In this document: positions 1,912-9,776 of the stretch, one piece after another
Layout of the letters: every line of letters begins with the position of its first letter
How positions within the stretch are numbered: the first letter of the stretch is position 1
Assembly: GCF_011378715.1 (NCBI RefSeq)
Contig: NZ_WTKU01000001.1
Location: forward strand, 310,001-374,000
Length of the DNA: 64,000 nt
Direction of reading: 5' to 3'
DNA from: Psychromonas sp. SA13A
Lineage (GTDB): Bacteria; Pseudomonadota; Gammaproteobacteria; Enterobacterales; Psychromonadaceae
Translations under genes and position numbers: made by a program
Notes under the pieces: generated by a model
What the model was told of the DNA's origin: nothing
The model's input: only the letters and a program-made list of their open reading frames with translations
The model's database searches: none

Positions 1912-1996
1912 CTTTGAGTTGGGTTCGTCTGCGCTCATCAGGTCAGTGCGATTAATTGTTCGCTTTGAGTTTGGTTCGTCTGCGCTCATCCGGTCT
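1912..1996 (+). repeat. Tandem copy of the module-end motif
   Basis: A 34-base unit beginning CTTTGAGTTNGGTTCGTCTG appears twice, at 1912-1945 and 1963-1996, with two or three differences. It appears again at the left edge of the second module (4957-4990). An inverted, slightly shorter version lies at 6466-6486. The core is GGTTCGTCTGCGCTCATC followed by NGGTC. This suggests it marks an element end. Confidence 0.75.
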
Positions 1997-2040
1997 ACTT
2001 GATATTTATTATCAGTGGTTTCGCCCTGTCGGCGACACGT

Positions 2041-2063
2041 CTTTCTTTTATCAGAAAAGAAAG
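2041..2063 (+). repeat. Conserved hairpin with compensatory change
   Basis: CTTTCTTTT pairs with AAAAGAAAG across a five-base loop. In the second module (5037-5062) the stem reads CTTTCTCTT with AAGAGAAAG, so a T-A pair has become C-G on both arms. This points to selection on the fold rather than the sequence. Confidence 0.75.
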
Positions 2064-2388
2064 GCGGCAAAGAAACTGACACCGAATCGTTTTCTCATCC
2101 AAATAATAAATGGCTTTTATAACGCACCGGCTCTTACGGCACATCCATGTGCCAAACGAGCCTAATCCAAACATCCTGTTTGGCTTTGCTAAAAGCCATT
2201 GATGATTTGGGAAAACTCAACGGTGGGATTGTTCGTCCATGATGGACAATGTTAACTGCTTATTTTATTCAACATGGCAAAGCTATAACCTATTTTCACA
2301 TAATCCATTTGGTTCTGCATTTCCGCCATAAATGTGGGATTATTCTGTCTATCTACATGACCAAGGTTTCAGTTTTATTTTTAACTTG

Positions 2389-2416
2389 TTGATTAGTTTA
2401 TTCAGTTTGTTATTCT
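2389..2416 (+). promoter_or_regulatory. Possible promoter reading into the cargo slot
   Basis: TTGATT (2389-2394) and TATTCT (2411-2416) are 16 bases apart inside the conserved left end and are also present in copy 2. They would read outward into whatever cargo follows. The match to the sigma-70 consensus is only fair. Confidence 0.3.
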
Positions 2417-2516
2417 AACATCAAATTTAAATAAATAATCGCGCTCTATCTATCCACCAGAAATACAGAATAGTTCTGCTTAATTACGCTGTTAGCTTTT
2501 ACTCAAGGAGAGAGTT

Positions 2517-2981
2517 ATCGAATACGCAGAAGAGTTCTCAAAACCGGAAAAATACAAAAGGATATTTTTATTTCTTTTGCTCGGTGTGCTGTGCCTAATA
2601 ATTAATGAAAAGTGGTATCTACCTTTTCTTAATTGGTATGTAGATACTGTTCATTGTCACACACCGTTCGGTTACTCTGGAATTTCAGTTATGTGGTATT
2701 CGTTATTTGTAGGTATACCGCTCTTCGGTGCTTTCATGATTGGTATTGTTACTGTTCCAATTGGCTATAAAGGTATTATTCATAAACAGTTTCCCCCCAA
2801 GGGAATGAAAGTGTACAAGCCCACGAAAATCCTAAGAGGCTGGAAAGGTAATTTAAAATCGGTATTTCATCTATTAATACCAACCTTCTTAATATTGTTT
2901 TCTATTTGGGGCTACTTTCAAGTTGACCAAATGCCGCACGAAGTACCCGAAGATTTTGACTATAGCGTATGTAAAAGCTAA
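2517..2981 (+). CDS. Hypothetical membrane protein, cargo of module 1
   Basis: I do not recognise this family. The open frame has no ATG or GTG near its beginning. AAGGAG at 2505-2510 points to an ATC codon at 2517 as the start, giving 154 residues; the alternative TTG at 2577 has no well-placed ribosome site. The N-terminus is charged (EYAEEFSKPEKYKR), followed by a membrane segment at about residues 21-36, a second at about 60-85 and a third near 118-135. The C-terminus is acidic (PHEVPEDFDY). Its stop overlaps the first base of the conserved right end. The hydrophilic leader fits the upstream start. The ATC could be a rare start codon, a mutated ATG or a sequence error. Confidence 0.6.
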   Translation: MEYAEEFSKPEKYKRIFLFLLLGVLCLIINEKWYLPFLNWYVDTVHCHTPFGYSGISVMWYSLFVGIPLFGAFMIGIVTVPIGYKGIIHKQFPPKGMKVYKPTKILRGWKGNLKSVFHLLIPTFLILFSIWGYFQVDQMPHEVPEDFDYSVCKS

Positions 2982-3144
2982 TCGGGTAGCCGGAGGTATC
3001 TAACCTCCAGCCCCCACATCACCCTGCATGCGGCTCCGCACAGGGCGGTTCATCTTATGATGAATAGTGAATATTAATCCACAAGCCCTTTAATGACATC
3101 AAACCTTGTCTGGCTAAAAACTCATTACTAATCGCACTATTGAT
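2981..3144 (+). repeat. Right conserved end of module copy 1
   Basis: This 164-base block is the same length as 6159-6322 and nearly identical to it. It begins ATCGGGTAGCC and folds into two consecutive hairpins. The first is GGAGGT/ACCTCC with a five-base loop. The second has stems CCCTG/CAGGG and TGCGG/CCGCA, flanked by ACC/GGT. The blocks diverge right after CGCACTATTGAT. The fold recalls structured ends of retroelements or single-strand transposons, but I cannot assign it. Confidence 0.85.
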
Positions 3145-3377
3145 ACCTTGAGTTAGTGGATTGGAGTGGACGTATTTTACGAGAAGATAAGCGAGGTGCT
3201 ATTGCAGGCCATCATCCTAAATTGCTCAGTAAGCTTGGCCTAGATGAAGCAACTTGGTTAACGTTAGCTAGTCGATTTGGTAAAGACTATCAAGGTGCTG
3301 TTGGCTCTTTAGAAGAATTAGCTTCATTTGCAGAACATACAGGTAAATGCTGGATAGCCAGTAAGAACCAATTATGA
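3144..3377 (+). pseudogene. Y1 (REP-associated) transposase, C-terminal remnant
   Basis: The frame encodes about 75 residues: LVDWSGRILREDKRGAI, then an LGLDEATW segment and a C-terminal helical stretch. This resembles the tail found after the HUH tyrosine domain in the larger Y1/RAYT transposases, which have a typical DWTGR-IRDDKRG motif. The catalytic HUH histidines and tyrosine are absent, and the frame runs into a stop at 3141-3143 in the right end of module 1, so the gene is cut off at its 5' side. The GTG at 3156 is probably only an internal codon. It is a possible relic of the enzyme that moved the modules; that link is inference. Confidence 0.6.
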
Positions 3378-3965
3378 CGACAAGCTCATTAATCTTTCTT
3401 AAAAATTCCTTAATCAAAATATAATTAGCGATAGCTAATCGTAAACGTGCGCATAACTCACGATTTATGTTGAAATGTGTATTATTTGGGTATTTTAAAC
3501 ACCTAAGAATTCCAGCAGATAATGACGACTATGATTTTAACAATCATGTTTAAGCCTGTTTCAGATTTTAAATTATTGGCTGTCTATTTTTTCTCATATT
3601 GTTTATACCGAAGAAGTAAGCTACTGATCAGCTATAAAATCTTATCTCAGTTGATGCTAAATAATATTAAAATGTGTCAGTATATTTTACAGTTTACAAT
3701 TATATAGAAAAGGTTGTTTTATAACTCATTAAAACTGTTGATAATCTTTTTTCGGTATACTTTATGCTTTGAACTTGACTGAAGGAACAAATACAAAAAG
3801 GTTAATGATAGCTCAATTAAATGGTTTTAATTGGAACAGAAAAATTGTCTGATTATTGAATAATCGTAGTAAAGCGCTTTTATTTCTCCTCTTTTATTTC
3901 TCCTCTAATATAACGAAAATTTAACATGAATTTAATATAGCTCTAACATAAAAGAGGATGTTGAC
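3378..3965. other. AT-rich gap without a convincing gene
   Basis: A 61-codon open frame at 3522-3707 has low-complexity composition, no ribosome site and no recognisable motif, so I do not call it. A perfect 14-base tandem duplication, CTTTTATTTCTCCT, lies at 3877-3904 just ahead of the PEP-CTERM gene. Confidence 0.6.
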
Positions 3966-4679
3966 ATGAATAAATCTATAGTAATAGGCATTGTAATGAG
4001 TTGCGTTGTTGCACTTATTCCGGTTAAATCTAACGCGATCTTGTTAAATGCAGGCGATACTGCTTTTCTTCCTGGTACAACGGCTGCAATGGAGCCGGAA
4101 TTAGCTGGCGTAGTTATCTCTGATAATTCAATCTACGATTCTATAGTGCCAGGTGGTAACAATCTTTTTCAAGTAGGCATTGATGTTACCAATAGAGTGA
4201 CTCGCTCAAATGCTAACAATAGCTTAATATTTTCTCCTAGATTAGTACCTACATTGAATAACACTACTGGTAACTTTCTTGTCGACCAAGTTGTCATCGC
4301 TGGTTTTTCTGATTTTGTGTTAGATGTTAACTATCGTAGCGATGGTTTAGGCGACAGAGGGCCTAATACGGCAACTCGCTCGGCAGATGGAAACGAGCTT
4401 AGTTTTGATTTCCTGTTTCCACTCTCAGTGGCTAATTTATTCGCAAATCCTCAAGAACAGAGTTATTTCCTTTCAATAAACTCCAATGCCACGGCCTATA
4501 CGAATACTGGTAGTATGAGCATTTTTGGCAGACACATAGATTATCCTGGGGAAACATTTGAATTTACTTATGCGGGGTTAGCTGTGCCTGTAAATGAACC
4601 TGTTGCGGTTAGTGAGCCCCCTCTCACTGCACTTTTTGTGATATTTCTTTCGTGTTTAATGGTATTTAGAAGATCTTAG
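3966..4679 (+). CDS. Secreted PEP-CTERM-type protein
   Basis: A 237-residue exported protein of unknown function. It has a Sec signal peptide (MNKSIVIG, hydrophobic core, cleavage near SNA at residues 22-24). The body is rich in Asn, Ser and Thr, predicts as beta-rich and has no cysteines. The C-terminus has the tripartite sorting layout: SEPP at about residue 216, a hydrophobic helix and a closing RRS. This matches exosortase substrates, although the usual VPEP is SEPP here. Such proteins are cut and released or anchored by exosortase (EpsH/XrtA type), often in exopolysaccharide producers. No exosortase is in the window. The start follows GAGGA at 3953-3957. It lies alone between the two cassette modules. 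Confidence 0.65.
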   Translation: MNKSIVIGIVMSCVVALIPVKSNAILLNAGDTAFLPGTTAAMEPELAGVVISDNSIYDSIVPGGNNLFQVGIDVTNRVTRSNANNSLIFSPRLVPTLNNTTGNFLVDQVVIAGFSDFVLDVNYRSDGLGDRGPNTATRSADGNELSFDFLFPLSVANLFANPQEQSYFLSINSNATAYTNTGSMSIFGRHIDYPGETFEFTYAGLAVPVNEPVAVSEPPLTALFVIFLSCLMVFRRS

Positions 4680-4691
4680 GAAATGTAGGCT

Positions 4692-4708
4692 AGCTGCACG
4701 GATTGCAG
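4692..4708 (+). terminator. Short hairpin after the PEP-CTERM gene
   Basis: GCTGCA and TGCAGC pair around a five-base loop, 13 bases past the stop, followed by a loose T-rich stretch. It is a weak terminator candidate. Confidence 0.35.
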
Positions 4709-4956
4709 CACCATTTTCATCCAATTTTAATCTTTTGTGTTTTGTTTCATTTCTTACAGTTAAAGACAGTTGTTTATTCTGCTTTTATATATAAAAAACA
4801 ATTGCGTACACATATTTTATATCTGATATTTTTCATACACTAGCCGAGCTGAAACTTAGCTGGGCTACATTAAATTTGACTACAAGCATATTAGCAAAAC
4901 CTTCAAGAGGTAATATCACGAGTTGAAATTCGTCGAAGATCGTGGACCCCCATAAA

Positions 4957-5492
4957 CTTTGAGTTGGGTTCGTCTCCGCTCATCCGGTCTGCTTGATTAA
5001 TTATATGCTTTGGTATTTCGCCCTTGCGGCGACTTTACTTTCTCTTGATCAGAAGAGAAAGTAAGCAAAGAGACTGACACCGAGTCGTTTTCTGGTCCAA
5101 ATAATAAATGGCTTTTATAACACACCGGCTCTTACGGCACATCCATGTGACAAACGAGCCTAATCCAAACATCCTGTTTGGCTTTGCTAAAAGCCATTGA
5201 TGATTTGGGAAAACTTAACGGTGGGATTGTGCGTCCATGATGGGCAATGTTAACTGCTTATTTTATTCAGCATAGCAAAACTATAATCTATTTTTCACAT
5301 AATCTATTTGATTCTGTATTTCCGCCATAAATGTGGGATTATTCTGTCTATCTACATGACCAAGGTTCAGTTTTATTTTTAACTTGTTGATTAGTTTATT
5401 CAGCTTGTTATTCTAACATCAAATTTAAATAAACAATCGCGTTCTATCTATCCACCAGAAATACAGAATAGTTCTGCTTAATTACGCTGTTA
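4957..5492 (+). repeat. Left conserved end of module copy 2
   Basis: This 536-base block corresponds to 1963-2494. It starts with the CTTTGAGTTGGG edge motif and ends at GCTGTTA. It keeps the covarying hairpin (5037-5062) and the branched inverted structure at about 5095-5212. Differences from copy 1 are mostly single substitutions and short indels in the first 100 bases. Confidence 0.85.
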
Positions 5493-5510
5493 AGTTTCTA
5501 AGGAGGTCTG

Positions 5511-5915
5511 GTGCCAGAATTTAAACTTTTAGATAATGTTATTGATTACATGGAATCCACTGGATCAACATATAAGTTAGTAACTCTTGGTGTAGATGAA
5601 AAGTTATTAAATGAAATCAATAGTCAAAACAATACAACCTATACGCTCAACGAATTAGAGAAAGCCGCTGATAAGTGTTTGGCTCATGAGTGGTTAACAC
5701 ATGCAACTATGGGGGGCGGTAAATACGGAAGTTTACGAATTACCCCAAAGGGTGTTGGTGCGGCTCGTTCAAGACGAAAAGCCGAAGAACTAAAAGCCTC
5801 ACGAACATGGCTTAAGAAATCATCTGACTATATTGAAGACCACAAAGGCATTTTAATATTTTTCGGTGCTGTTATTGCTCTAGCTACATTCATTTTAAAA
5901 GTTACGGGAGAGTAA
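5511..5915 (+). CDS. Hypothetical protein with C-terminal membrane anchor, cargo of module 2
   Basis: I do not recognise this family. GTG start, with AAGGAGG about six bases upstream and only 18 bases from the end of the conserved left block. The 134-residue product has a soluble N-terminal part (about 1-85) rich in alternating helices, with a GGGKYGSLRITPKGVG segment that looks like the wing of a winged-helix fold. A basic helix (RSRRKAEELKASR) follows, then one membrane segment at about residues 113-131. It could be a membrane-anchored regulator or a host-interaction protein; this is a guess from shape only. It is one base from the next gene, so the two are co-expressed cargo. Confidence 0.7.
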   Translation: MPEFKLLDNVIDYMESTGSTYKLVTLGVDEKLLNEINSQNNTTYTLNELEKAADKCLAHEWLTHATMGGGKYGSLRITPKGVGAARSRRKAEELKASRTWLKKSSDYIEDHKGILIFFGAVIALATFILKVTGE

Positions 5916-5916
5916 A

Positions 5917-6147
5917 ATGGAAGATAAAAGCTTCTCAATTAGCTTAAAGTGTTTGTTTTGTGATTGTCCCCTTGAAGGGGAGTCTGAAACGGAGTTCAAG
6001 TCAGGAGATTTATTAAAGTGCCAAGAATGTGGTGAATTAAATGATTACGATGCATTAATCGATGTTGCATCTGATGAGGGCAAAGAGTTAGCCACAGATT
6101 ATGCTAAATTAGAAATAGAAAAAATGCTCAAAAAGGCATTTAAGTAA
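5917..6147 (+). CDS. Small zinc-ribbon-like protein, cargo of module 2
   Basis: A 76-residue protein with a CLFCDC pair near residues 13-18 and CQEC at about 35-38, spaced like a zinc ribbon. A helical acidic/lysine tail follows (ELATDYAKLEIEKMLKKAFK). There is no signal peptide, so it is probably cytoplasmic. The start ATG lies one base after the preceding stop, inside a TAAAATG junction, so translation is probably coupled. Its stop is 11 bases before the conserved right end. The function is unknown; the family likely binds one zinc ion through four cysteines. Confidence 0.7.
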   Translation: MEDKSFSISLKCLFCDCPLEGESETEFKSGDLLKCQECGELNDYDALIDVASDEGKELATDYAKLEIEKMLKKAFK

Positions 6148-6158
6148 ACGAAACTTCA

Positions 6159-6322
6159 ATCGGGTAGCCGGAGGTATCTAACCTCCAGCCCCCACACCAC
6201 CCTGCATGCGGATCCTCACAGGGCGGTTCATCTTATGATGAATAGTGAATATTAATCCACAAGTCCTTTAATTACATCAAACTTTGTCTGGCTAAAAACT
6301 CATTACTGATCGCACTATTGAT
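6159..6322 (+). repeat. Right conserved end of module copy 2
   Basis: The 164-base counterpart of 2981-3144. The first hairpin (GGAGGT/ACCTCC) is unchanged. The second keeps CCCTG/CAGGG, but its upper stem reads TGCGG against CCTCA, with one mismatch, so this copy may be slightly decayed. Confidence 0.85.
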
Positions 6323-6508
6323 CCCTTTGGTTTTCGAACTACGACAAGGCCCTTTACTGGTACTTTTTATAAGCCCATTGGCACAGGAAACAGCTTCCTT
6401 TGGCTAATCAAAGGAAAGAAAGGCGTCACAAAGACGGAATACCAAAGCCTACCATTAACCTTAATGACCGGCGAGCGCAGACGAGCTATAGCCAATAGTA
6501 GGAAACTA

Positions 6509-7405
6509 CTAACTAACCTTACTTTTATTACTTTGTAATTCACTTAAATGAACCAAGTTACTTTGTAACTCTTTCCATTCTTTACCCTGTCGTTTTGGTG
6601 ATTGCACTTGCACACTTTGGTATAACTCAACTAACTGCCCTGCTATTGAAATAGCGACTTCCATTGGTAATTTACCTGATACTTCTTTTAGGCCAACAGG
6701 ACAGGTCATGGTTTGAACCTGTGCATCAGTGAAACCTCTTTGCGATAAACGGTATTGAAACTTCTTCGCTTTAGTTTCTGAGCCAATCACTCCTAACCAT
6801 AGTGAATCTGCACGTTTTATAACGGCTTGCGTTAACGAGAAATCTAATTGATGGTTATGCGTTAAGATTAAAGAAGCAGTATTTTTTACTGCATTGTTAA
6901 CTTGATCCACAGGCGCTTCATCAACCACTTTTTGGACGTTGCTTGGTATCTGCTCTGGAAATAGATCTGTGCGGCTATCAATCCAACGTACGCGTATTGG
7001 CAGCTGCCCGAGCATTGGTATCAAGGCTTGCGCCACATGACCTGCACCATATATATCTAAGTGCATGTTGTCGCTAGCAAAGACTTCAAATAATACTAAC
7101 ACTTGGCCACCACAGCACTGTCCGAGACTGGCCCCTAGTTGAAAGTTTTCAACTTGCTGGCAGGTTTCTCCCTGTGTTATCAACTGTCGAGCATGTTTAA
7201 TCGCTTTAAACTCTAAATGCCCGCCACCAATAGTCGCGTAGATATTATTTTTACTCACCACCATTTTAGTGCCACTGGCACGCGGTGTTGAACCTGCCGC
7301 GCCTAATAACGTAATAATGACGTAGGTTTCGCTACCCTGTTCAAGTTCAGTGGCAGCTTGTAACCAACTATGTTTATGCAAACCTTGCATTGAAATATTA
7401 AGCAT
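6509..7405 (-). CDS. xdhC: Xanthine dehydrogenase accessory protein XdhC
   Basis: XdhC binds the molybdenum cofactor, supports its sulfuration and inserts it into the large subunit of xanthine dehydrogenase in the cytoplasm. The N-terminal part has the family motif LLGAAGSTPRASGTKM followed by IGGGHLEF and GQCCGG. The C-terminal half is a Rossmann-like domain opening with DIYGAGHVAQALIP. I place the start at 7405 (MLNISMQ), where AAGGAG lies six bases upstream. A longer frame to 7483 would read backwards into xdhB. The start overlaps the end of xdhB by eight bases, so the genes are translationally coupled. It is the last gene of xdhABC. Length, about 298 residues, is normal. Confidence 0.92.
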   Translation of the reverse strand: MLNISMQGLHKHSWLQAATELEQGSETYVIITLLGAAGSTPRASGTKMVVSKNNIYATIGGGHLEFKAIKHARQLITQGETCQQVENFQLGASLGQCCGGQVLVLFEVFASDNMHLDIYGAGHVAQALIPMLGQLPIRVRWIDSRTDLFPEQIPSNVQKVVDEAPVDQVNNAVKNTASLILTHNHQLDFSLTQAVIKRADSLWLGVIGSETKAKKFQYRLSQRGFTDAQVQTMTCPVGLKEVSGKLPMEVAISIAGQLVELYQSVQVQSPKRQGKEWKELQSNLVHLSELQSNKSKVS

Positions 7406-9776
7406 CATCAACTCCTTGTTGGCCTTGTTCACTGCCCTCTTTTTTCTGCGCTTGTAACCACTCTTGCGCCACTTGCACGGCACCTAAAATACATTCTGCT
7501 GTAGCAGGCGTGTTTAAGCTCGGTGCAAATTGATAATCTGTGATACTGGCGACGGCATTTCGCAACGCACTCCACACGCTGATTCCTAACATGAAAGGAG
7601 GTTCACCGACGGCTTTGGATTTAAACACGGTTGTCGCTGGATTTTGTGAATCGTAAAGCGTGACATTAAACTCTGCAGGTGTATCGCCTATCGCTGGAAT
7701 TTTATAAGTAGCAGGTGCGTTACTGGCCAACTGACCTTTATCATTCCAACTTAAGTCTTCAGTGGTTAACCATCCCATACCTTGAATAAAGCCACCTTCA
7801 ATCTGTCCAATATCTAATGCGGGATTAATCGAGTTACCGACATCATGCAAAATATCAACTCGTGTGACTGAGTTTTCTCCGGTTAACACATCAACTTCTA
7901 CTTCACTCAGTGCAATTCCATAAGCGTAATAAAAGAAAGGATTACCTTCCGCTTTTTCACGGTCGTAATAGATTTCAGGGGTGGCATAAAAGCCAGTGCT
8001 AGAAAGTGAAATACGATTTAAATAAGCCAGGTTAATTAATTCTGGAAAGCTGATTTTCCCTTTTTCATGGATCAACTGATTATTCACTAACTGTAAACTG
8101 TCCGCTTTTACTGCAAAGTGCTCGCTAGCAAAGGTGAGTAATCTTTCTTTAATCGTGTTTGCTGCGTTTAATGCAGCCATACCGTTTAAGTCGGTTCCAC
8201 TTGATGCTGCAGTGGGTGAGGTGTTGGGCACTTTATCGGTACGTGTTGCATTGACTAGTACATGTTGCATATCGATGGAAAAAGCCTGTGCCACTATTTG
8301 TGCTATTTTGGTGTGTAAACCCTGTCCCATTTCCGTACCGCCATGATTCACATGAACGGAGCCATCGGCGTAAATAACCACTAGCGCACCGGCTTGGTTT
8401 AAATGCTGTACGGTAAAGGAAATGCCAAATTTAACCGGTGTTAATGACAACCCTTTTTTAATGATTGGAGAATGCTGATTAAAGTTTTCAATACTGGCTT
8501 TACGAGCCCAGTAATCGGCCTCTACTTCCATTTTTGCAATCATATCCTGAAGAATAAATTGCTCTACTTTTTGTTTATAAGGAGTGATATCACGACCAGG
8601 CGTATACAGGTTAAGCTTACGAATCTGTAATGGGTCTTTACCAAGGTAGTAAGCAATATCATCAACAATTTGCTCTGCGACAATCATGCCCTGCGGACCA
8701 CCAAAACCTCGGAATGCGGTATTACTAACGGTGTTCGTTTTACAACGGTTTCCATTAATATGTGCGGCAGGATAATAATAAGCATTGTCAGCGTGAAACA
8801 ATGCACGGTCTACAATTGCATCGGATAAATCTGCGGAGTAACCACAGTAACCATTGATATCAATATCAACACCGGTGATCAGTCCATCATCATCAAACCC
8901 TACTTGATAGGTGTTGTAAAAGGGATGACGTTTGCCCGTTACTTTAAAATCATCGCCACGTGCTAAACGAATTTTAACACTTTTACCCGTATAAAAAGCG
9001 GCCAGTGCAGCTAGACATGCCCAAGGTGCAGCCTGCGTTTCTTTTCCTCCAAAACCACCACCCATACGACGCATTTCTACGGTGACATAATTAAATGGTT
9101 TATTAAGAATTTTTGCGACTAAGTGCTGCACTTCAGAGGGATGTTGGCTTGACGACTCAATAAACATGCCACCATCTTCCGTTGGCGTGGCAGTGCTCAC
9201 TTGCCCTTCTAAATAAAAATGCTCTTGCCCACCCACGTAGAGTTCACCATTAATTTGGTGCTTGGCGTCATTAATTGCTTTTTTTGGCTCACCTCGATGT
9301 AATGCATGTGGAGGGCGCACCCAATGTTGCTCAGCCATCGCTTGTTTAATATCAAGCACAGTCGCTGTCTCTTGATATTCAATTTTCACTTTTCTAGCAG
9401 CAGTGCGAGCTATTTGATAACTGCTTGCGACTACCAATAAAATAGGCTGACTATGATATTCAATTTTGTCATCTGCCAATAATATATCGCCACTAAATAC
9501 AGGACTGACATCATTTTTACCCGGTATATCCTTGGCGCTATAAATATCCACCACACCTGTTACTGACAAAGCATCGCGTGTATCGATGGAAACAATATGG
9601 CCACAGGTAATTGTTGATAACACAGGGTAGGCATGCAAACTGTTTATTGCTTCGGGTTTATCATCAATATAAATGGCCTTGCCAGTGACCTGTTTAAGTG
9701 CACTTTCATGCGCAAAAGATTGGCCAATCGCATTCTTTGCAAGGCCACTTGGTTTATCTGTTTTAAAGTGCCTCAT
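7398..9776 (-). CDS. xdhB: Xanthine dehydrogenase, molybdopterin large subunit
   Basis: This 792-residue subunit carries the molybdenum centre and oxidises hypoxanthine and xanthine to urate in the cytoplasm. Visible family motifs are QEHFYLEGQ, RMGGGFGGKET, AFRGFGGPQGM, GTEMGQGLHTKI and AVGEPPFMLG; the last contains the conserved active-site glutamate. No signal peptide is present, as usual. It overlaps xdhA by 14 bases at its start and xdhC at its end. Its natural partners are the iron-sulfur/FAD subunit encoded just upstream and XdhC. Expression is probably under the RutR-like operator at 11371. It is complete and without frame damage. Confidence 0.94.
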   Translation of the reverse strand: MRHFKTDKPSGLAKNAIGQSFAHESALKQVTGKAIYIDDKPEAINSLHAYPVLSTITCGHIVSIDTRDALSVTGVVDIYSAKDIPGKNDVSPVFSGDILLADDKIEYHSQPILLVVASSYQIARTAARKVKIEYQETATVLDIKQAMAEQHWVRPPHALHRGEPKKAINDAKHQINGELYVGGQEHFYLEGQVSTATPTEDGGMFIESSSQHPSEVQHLVAKILNKPFNYVTVEMRRMGGGFGGKETQAAPWACLAALAAFYTGKSVKIRLARGDDFKVTGKRHPFYNTYQVGFDDDGLITGVDIDINGYCGYSADLSDAIVDRALFHADNAYYYPAAHINGNRCKTNTVSNTAFRGFGGPQGMIVAEQIVDDIAYYLGKDPLQIRKLNLYTPGRDITPYKQKVEQFILQDMIAKMEVEADYWARKASIENFNQHSPIIKKGLSLTPVKFGISFTVQHLNQAGALVVIYADGSVHVNHGGTEMGQGLHTKIAQIVAQAFSIDMQHVLVNATRTDKVPNTSPTAASSGTDLNGMAALNAANTIKERLLTFASEHFAVKADSLQLVNNQLIHEKGKISFPELINLAYLNRISLSSTGFYATPEIYYDREKAEGNPFFYYAYGIALSEVEVDVLTGENSVTRVDILHDVGNSINPALDIGQIEGGFIQGMGWLTTEDLSWNDKGQLASNAPATYKIPAIGDTPAEFNVTLYDSQNPATTVFKSKAVGEPPFMLGISVWSALRNAVASITDYQFAPSLNTPATAECILGAVQVAQEWLQAQKKEGSEQGQQGVDDA

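What the first reader, a model, noticed from the sequence alone, without database searches (positions are those of the whole stretch)
1912..6486. Two cassette-like modules with constant ends and exchangeable cargo
The sequence shows two units with matching left ends (1963-2494 and 4957-5492), right ends of exactly 164 bases (2981-3144 and 6159-6322), and unrelated cargo. Cargo in unit 1 is one membrane-protein gene; in unit 2 a membrane-anchored protein plus a zinc-ribbon protein. Cargo starts 18-23 bases after the left end with its own ribosome site and stops 0-11 bases before the right end. There is no recombinase inside. This is the best candidate in the window for an undescribed gene-capture or passenger-gene system. 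Known integron cassettes differ: they have short attC sites and no constant block of 0.5 kb.
Basis: seen in the sequence. Interest (0 to 1): 0.85.

Follow-up and report, generated by a model that had tools for sequence, protein, structure and literature searches.

The report
Integron sites capped by intron fragments
The two look-alike modules in this marine Psychromonas genome are landing sites of an integron (a bacterial gene-capture device) that sit away from their integrase gene, each holding a different captured gene and each closed off by a broken piece of a jumping intron, and close relatives carry tandem rows of such modules with other genes inside.

Summary
In each unit the left block is a dispersed TwoAYGGAY repeat plus an attI site (crossover G at 2491 and 5489). 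The cargo is one integron cassette: it starts G|TTRRRY, ends RYYYAA|, and the two ends are complementary. The right block is the 3' end (RT C-terminus, D5, D6) of a group IIC-attC intron on the minus strand, sitting in the cassette's R'' box; its 5' part is missing. "164 bases" is only where unit 1's copy is broken. The one integrase gene of this genome is on another contig and has an in-frame stop. In other Psychromonas the same ends recur with other cargo, and up to six units [attI or attI-like block][cargo][intron tail] stand in tandem, with about 0.33-0.81 kb of tail plus attI where a 57-141 bp attC is expected. Orthologous arrays share flanks and distal cargo but differ in proximal cargo, with the left break at the attI crossover. 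The parts are known (integron, IIC-attC intron, attI-ended "unusual" cassettes); the tandem, multi-site, intron-capped organisation was in no paper I found. New variant of a known kind. Integrase acting in trans is inferred.

The parts
1963..2260 (+). Unit 1: copy of a dispersed genomic repeat; holds a TwoAYGGAY RNA match on the minus strand (2088-2222)
   Evidence: RF01731 64.9 bits, gathering 43; dispersed in own genome
2261..2491 (+). Unit 1: attI site, crossover G at 2491
   Evidence: 95% identical to unit 2 attI; 74% over 145 nt, E 5e-22, to the region beside an intact intI in G019
2492..2981 (+). Unit 1 cargo: one integron cassette; frame 2517-2981, small membrane protein (by reading) of unknown function; start codon unclear (ATC 2517 or TTG 2577)
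   Evidence: start TTAGCTTTTAC is the reverse complement of its end GTAAAAGCTAA; 68 homologous proteins
2980..3149 (-). Unit 1: 3' tail of a group IIC-attC intron (D5/D6 at 2981-3050), 5' part missing
   Evidence: RF00029 41.7 bits, gathering 40; alignments
3144..3502 (+). Right flank of unit 1, 89% identical to the right flank of the sister platform on contig C7, where other cargo lies between the same flanks
4957..5258 (+). Unit 2: dispersed repeat; TwoAYGGAY RNA match on the minus strand 5086-5220
   Evidence: 52.8 bits, gathering 43
5259..5489 (+). Unit 2: attI site, crossover G at 5489
5490..6157 (+). Unit 2 cargo: one integron cassette with two genes (5511-5915, 134 aa, C-terminal membrane segment by reading; 5917-6147, 76 aa, zinc-ribbon-like only by reading and sub-threshold Pfam)
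   Evidence: start TTAAGTTTC pairs with end GAAACTTCAA with one extra base; Pfam; 154 homologous proteins of the 134-aa product
6158..6370 (-). Unit 2: 3' tail of the same intron family (D5/D6 at 6159-6228), including codons of the reverse transcriptase C-terminus
   Evidence: RF00029 39.7 bits, just under gathering 40; up to 94-95% to tails in other Psychromonas
6404..6484 (-). Fragment of the dispersed repeat, inverted (73%), right of unit 2

Best explanation
Each unit is an orphan integron platform: an attI site without a neighbouring integrase, holding one gene cassette whose attC was hit at its R'' box by a group IIC-attC intron; only the intron's 3' tail survives and the rest of the attC is gone. 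Shown: identity of attI, cassette ends and intron tail; other cargo in the same frame at orthologous and paralogous sites; left breakpoint of the exchange within 3-5 nt of the attI crossover. Inferred: (1) an integron integrase encoded elsewhere in the cell inserts cassettes at these attI sites in trans; (2) the intron, reverse-transcribed from its 3' end, leaves 5'-truncated tails in the bottom strand of the last cassette's attC and so fixes that cassette; (3) units multiply and lose cargo by homologous recombination between tails and between dispersed repeats, which gives tandem attI-cassette-tail arrays. In this genome the only integrase gene over the family cut-off has an in-frame stop, so the units may be frozen now.
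For: attI: w1 and w2 match the region beside an intact intI of G019 (E 5e-22, 8e-20); block iii E 3e-43 to the intI locus of G006; block ii only E 3e-6. intI over cut-off in 21 of 24 Psychromonas genomes. Cassette ends: of 51 tail starts 40 have an attI-type block within 4 kb; of the 25 with cargo under 1.2 kb, 20 have at least 7 of 9 complementary end bases (shuffled ends: mean 2.9, maximum 8 of 25 in 2000 shuffles). Intron: Rfam D5/D6 on the minus strand; a full-length copy in another genus of the order (L274) has an attC-like remainder on its far side (read by eye), its RT passes TIGR04416 and is nearest to GsI-IIC RT (E 3e-134). Exchange: permease/xdhC site with different cargo in three species; w1 and C7 share the left flank to 3 nt past the attI G and the right flank from 3144; G009/G019 array pairs share flanks and distal cargo, left break 3 and 5 nt past the attI_iii G. 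Cassettes with a whole attC sit at sister attI sites: C7, C10, the SduA cassette at attI_iii of G019, and one at an attI_ii of G003.
Against: No recombination was observed. The own intI has a TAA at codon 71. In the L103/L104 pair the right breakpoint is not at an att crossover: identity rises about 120 nt inside the tail. In L102/L105 the right break lies inside the constant block. So integrase alone does not explain the exchange. Use of an internal attI is not shown: behind the internal attI_ii of L104 I expected a cassette with whole attC, but found a cassette ended by a ~20-nt tail fragment and then what looks like half an attC before the AbiH cassette. Five of 25 units fail the end-pairing test, and among the 25 are three orthologous pairs and one tandem duplicate. 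Block iv, the border in most units of the six-unit array, matches no attI beside an intI held. My attC finder gave many false hits. No promoter excess in the units (11 found, 14.7 expected).
Confidence: 0.85

Rival explanations
1. The mobile unit in the arrays is cargo + intron tail + attI: an attI-ended cassette moved by attI x attI recombination, so that the tail-attI block has taken the place of attC.
For: Tail-to-attI_ii blocks of 405-410 nt stand between different cargos in arrays of G009, G019 and G003 (7 of 10 type-ii distances); IntI1 excises an attI1-aadB-attI1 construct at 100% and reinserts it (PMC12901181: abstract, parts of introduction and discussion, passages); distal cargo is shared and proximal cargo differs in both array pairs.
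Against: In L103/L104 the tail part next to the differing cargo and the rest of the block seem to have different histories, which one moving unit does not predict. In the window no attI directly follows a tail. Internal attI use was looked for in one place and not confirmed.
Confidence: 0.22
2. Cargo is shuffled only by homologous recombination between the constant blocks; no integrase has acted since the platforms formed.
For: Change of identity inside the tail in L103/L104; many tails 87-95% identical to the window's across loci; dispersed repeats; own intI broken.
Against: Left breaks lie within 3-5 nt of the attI crossover in 3 of 3 pairs compared; cassettes with whole attC at sister attI sites.
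Confidence: 0.25
3. One ordinary segmental duplication whose cargo then decayed.
For: Left blocks 92% alike; w1 and C7 also share a right flank, so the platform itself was duplicated.
Against: Cargos are not diverged copies: no cargo-to-cargo match between the units, different protein relatives, each with its own matching pair of ends; other cargo at the same site in other species.
Confidence: 0.03
4. A gene-capture system unrelated to integrons, as first proposed.
For: No integrase and no whole attC in the two units.
Against: attI, cassette ends and the attC-specific intron all point to an integron.
Confidence: 0.02

Closest known systems
Sedentary chromosomal integron (intI-attI-cassette array)
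   Same: attI sequence, G|TTRRRY crossover, cassette ends, small genes; in relatives also defence genes (AbiH, Shedu SduA)
   Different: no intI beside the attI; several attI sites per genome and in tandem in relatives; mostly one cassette per site; last attC lost
Group IIC-attC introns (S.ma.I2 and kin)
   Same: D5/D6; opposite orientation; insertion in R''; class C RT in the full-length relative L274
   Different: copies beside Psychromonas cassettes in the loci held are 5'-truncated, except that one (G001:C195) runs into a contig end and may be longer; 19 and 11 matches, fragments included, in G009 and G019; tails repeated in tandem. One 5'-truncated copy in an array is published (UHB.F1, PMC7923331)
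[quoted passage not shown]
   Same: an attI in place of attC downstream of the cargo, in the relatives' tandem arrays
   Different: chromosomal arrays of several units with an intron tail between cargo and attI; function untested
CALIN (clusters of attC lacking integrase)
   Same: cassettes without neighbouring integrase
   Different: these have attI and lack whole attC

Membership tests
Integron | attI site | tested here: met
   homology to the region beside intact intI
Integron | intI adjacent to attI | tested here: not met
   none in the units; the one intI over cut-off in this genome is on contig C33 and has an in-frame TAA. Hence 'orphan platform', not 'integron'
Integron | cassette boundaries G|TTRRRY and RYYYAAC with complementary ends | tested here: met
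   in the window the intron end follows RYYYAA in place of the C
Integron | complete attC (R''-L''-L'-R') | tested here: not met
   absent in both window units; present in sister platforms C7 and C10
Group IIC-attC intron | D5/D6 ribozyme core | tested here: met
   RF00029 41.7 and 39.7 bits, gathering 40, so the second is just below
Group IIC-attC intron | insertion in attC R'', bottom strand (TTGT/T) | tested here: met
   3' junction at R'' in the window; both junctions only in L274, read by eye; consensus from PMC7923331
Group IIC-attC intron | class C reverse transcriptase | tested here: inconclusive
   the full-length relative is nearest to GsI-IIC RT; the window keeps only C-terminal codons
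Group IIC-attC intron | complete intron with 5' end | tested here: not met
   both window copies truncated
delta-attI-type gene cassette | attI-derived site directly downstream of the cargo | tested here: not met
   not in the window; in relatives an attI follows after an intron tail
delta-attI-type gene cassette | excision and insertion by IntI | not testable with these tools
   needs the assay
CALIN | clustered complete attC sites without intI | tested here: not met
   no credible complete attC in the window units

The most novel reading that the evidence does not exclude
Psychromonas has evolved a second cassette format: cargo + truncated-intron tail + attI, stacked in tandem at several chromosomal sites, in which a dead retroelement end and a duplicated landing site do the work of attC, so that every unit is itself a new landing site and integrase serves many platforms in trans.
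Probability: 0.22. Interest if true: 0.8.

Novelty: new variant of a known kind. Interest (0 to 1): 0.6.

Why it matters
Integrons are usually described with one landing site beside one integrase. Here several species of a genus carry several landing sites, some in tandem, whose cassettes are closed by fragments of the intron class that has been proposed to take part in cassette formation (PMC7923331, background section). It offers natural material to test whether integrase works in trans on orphan attI, whether attI-ended cassettes are used outside the clinic, and whether intron tails serve as recombination handles. Annotation that looks for attC alone would be expected to miss such arrays.

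Tried and rejected
Rejected: plain duplication with decayed cargo, and a system unrelated to integrons (see rivals). Rejected: '164 bases' as a designed right end. Led nowhere: promoter/terminator scan (promoters 11 against 14.7 expected; terminators 8 against 3.8); Pfam on five window proteins gave only sub-threshold hits for three and none for two; PADLOC gave nothing for the two window cargo proteins tried; my attC finder was noisy, so no attC count is given. I did not build an attC covariance model, predict a protein structure, or search the viral, phage or plasmid collections.

Literature: searches in the open PMC library. PMC12901181: abstract, first part of the introduction, first part of the discussion, found passages. 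PMC7923331: abstract, sections 3 and 6. PMC8876359 and PMC2864571: passages only. All other papers: search listings only. Partridge 2009, Quiroga and Centron 2009 and Leon et al. are known here only through those texts. Subscription papers could not be searched, so 'not found in print' is limited to these searches.
Full report
Observation. The window is G000:C1:310001-374000 of a 4.57-Mb genome.

Left block. It has two parts. The first ~300 nt is a dispersed repeat; the whole block gives 52 listed matches in this genome (40 of 71 candidates scored), many confined to this part. It contains a TwoAYGGAY RNA match on the minus strand (64.9 and 52.8 bits, gathering 43). The remaining ~231 nt, ending in the G at 2491 and 5489, is an attI: it matches the region between an intact intI and the first cassette in G019 (74% over 145 nt, E 5e-22), and shorter stretches upstream of other intI genes, this genome's included (81% over 48 nt). 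Three other block types (ii, iii, iv) stand at the same place in other units; iii is a clear attI (E 3e-43 to the intI locus of G006), ii a weaker match (E 3e-6), iv has no intI partner.

Cargo. In unit 1 the cargo starts TTAGCTTTTAC and ends GTAAAAGCTAA; in unit 2 it starts TTAAGTTTC and ends GAAACTTCAA, with one extra base. This is what an integron cassette has (R' and R''). Across held Psychromonas loci, 51 tail starts were examined (one nested locus left out); 11 had no attI-type block within 4 kb and 15 had cargo of 1.2 kb or more and were left out of the test; of the other 25, 20 had at least 7 of 9 complementary bases, one skipped base allowed at a cost, against a mean of 2.9 and a maximum of 8 of 25 in 2000 shuffles. 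Three orthologous pairs and one tandem duplicate are among the units, so the effective number is smaller. The window cargo proteins have no family match over cut-off; they have 68 and 154 relatives, most unnamed, the named ones mainly gammaproteobacterial for unit 1 and broader for unit 2. Of ten cargo proteins chosen from other units, six matched Pfam (AbiH, SduA, LysE, GNAT acetyltransferase, RES, short-chain dehydrogenase) and four did not.

Right block. Rfam finds group II intron D5/D6 on the minus strand, ending at the cargo (41.7 and 39.7 bits, gathering 40). In longer copies the frame beyond is the C-terminal part of a group II reverse transcriptase (G001:C195, which runs into its contig end, and G005:C20). 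A full-length relative in another genus of the order (L274) has a 443-aa RT nearest to GsI-IIC RT, with the cassette end on one side and an attC-like remainder on the other (read by eye). That is a group IIC-attC intron, which PMC7923331 describes as inserting in R'' of the bottom strand at TTGT/T. Window copies lack the 5' part, and '164' is where unit 1's copy meets a flank shared with contig C7.

Elsewhere. Tails occur in 19 of 79 genomes searched, 13 of them among the 24 Psychromonas (at most 10 candidates per genome scored). A fuller search of eight genomes gave 19, 11, 10, 7, 6, 3, 3 and 2 matches, fragments included. The window attI matched 8 of 79 genomes, one of these a 22-nt match that may be chance. 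Between the permease and xdhC genes, the window genome, SP041 and 2B2-76 have units with different cargo, and strain RZ5 has one 440-aa gene (guaD by recall) and no unit; a fourth Psychromonas contig ends at the permease, and P. antarctica has another gene order and no unit in the stretch held.

Tandem arrays. In G009:C29 and G019:C1:1.68M an attI_iii is followed by five and four tails with attI_ii between them; in G009:C4 and G019:C1:2.15M by six and three tails with block iv between them. From tail start to the next attI-type G the distance was 334-431 nt for type ii (10 values, 7 of them 405-410), 596-814 nt for iv (8 values) and 578 and 1113 nt for type i; four further rows spanned a whole unit. 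An attC is 57-141 bp (PMC12901181). Between G009 and G019 the flank is alike up to 3 and 5 nt past the attI_iii crossover (94.6% and 90.3%), the middle cargo differs, and the distal cargo is shared (98.9% over 2019 nt; 95.8% over 1373 nt). In the first shared block of the first pair, the 120 nt next to the differing cargo are 91-93% alike and the rest 96-100%, whereas a block with shared cargo on both sides is 99.8% alike. Swings of a few percent also occur between other blocks, so this points to recombination within the tail but does not prove it.

Mechanism. Best reading: IntI inserts cassettes at orphan attI sites in trans; IIC-attC introns hit the last attC and leave 5'-truncated tails; homologous recombination in tails and repeats multiplies units and swaps cargo. 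The first two steps are inferred from anatomy, the third rests on one array pair. Cassettes with a whole attC at sister attI sites (C7, C10, attI_iii of L104, an attI_ii of L260) fit step one. I expected the same behind an internal attI of L104 and did not find it. Whether cargo+tail+attI moves as one unit is open; IntI1 does this with an artificial attI1-aadB-attI1 construct (PMC12901181).

Integrase. The only intI over cut-off in this genome has TAA at codon 71. G003 has a copy with the same stop. Between the two, pN/pS after the stop is 0.16 (19 synonymous and 11 nonsynonymous differences; Fisher 5e-7), as if the product were still selected. Two sequences only, so this is a lead.

Novelty. 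Each part is known: cassettes without integrase, IIC-attC introns in arrays, one truncated intron in an array, and attI-ended cassettes. The tandem, multi-locus, intron-capped attI organisation was not seen in the listings of the searches made. Hence new variant of a known kind.

Noticed in passing
G000:C33 (L043 3260-4252; L044) and G003:C1:100589-101551 (L142): Integron integrase genes in two species share an in-frame TAA at codon 71, yet the frame after it looks selected (pN/pS 0.16, Fisher 5e-7). Read-through, re-initiation or a recent common loss are possible.
   Followed up: partly
L106 889, L257 5127, L258 392, L259 7463 and, in reverse, L110 3256: An element with an IS91-type transposase and a phage-integrase-type gene (L110 1094-3045) seems to end in a 43-nt hairpin that lies directly after a cassette-end-like ...ATAA in four loci: it may target, or mimic, attC. 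That the hairpin is the element's end is inferred.
   Followed up: partly
window 2088-2222 and 5086-5220 (minus strand): TwoAYGGAY RNA matches lie in a repeat dispersed, partly in tandem, over this genome. A table in PMC2864571 lists the motif as probably RNA and probably not cis-regulatory.
   Followed up: partly
window 2506-2579: Unit 1's gene has a good ribosome site but the codon in place is ATC (2517); the first TTG is 20 codons later. Lost start or unusual initiation.
   Followed up: no
L102 6696-6895 and similar; L041 2574-2773: Block iv (...GAAATTCTACAGCCTCG|TT) acts as left border of cassettes like an attI but matches no attI beside any intI held.
   Followed up: partly
L043 2-2980 (minus strand): The first frame beside this genome's intI is at least 993 aa long and reads like a DNA methylase of a restriction system (name from reading, not searched), large for a cassette.
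   Followed up: no
L104, about 7340-7500 (minus strand): Between the internal attI_ii cassette and the AbiH cassette lie a very short intron tail fragment and what looks like the left half of an attC, so attC remnants without intron also occur.
   Followed up: partly
G019:C1:1684354 and G020:C21:74781: The same AbiH cassette (86% over 975 nt), each followed by an intron tail, stands behind different left borders in two species.
   Followed up: partly
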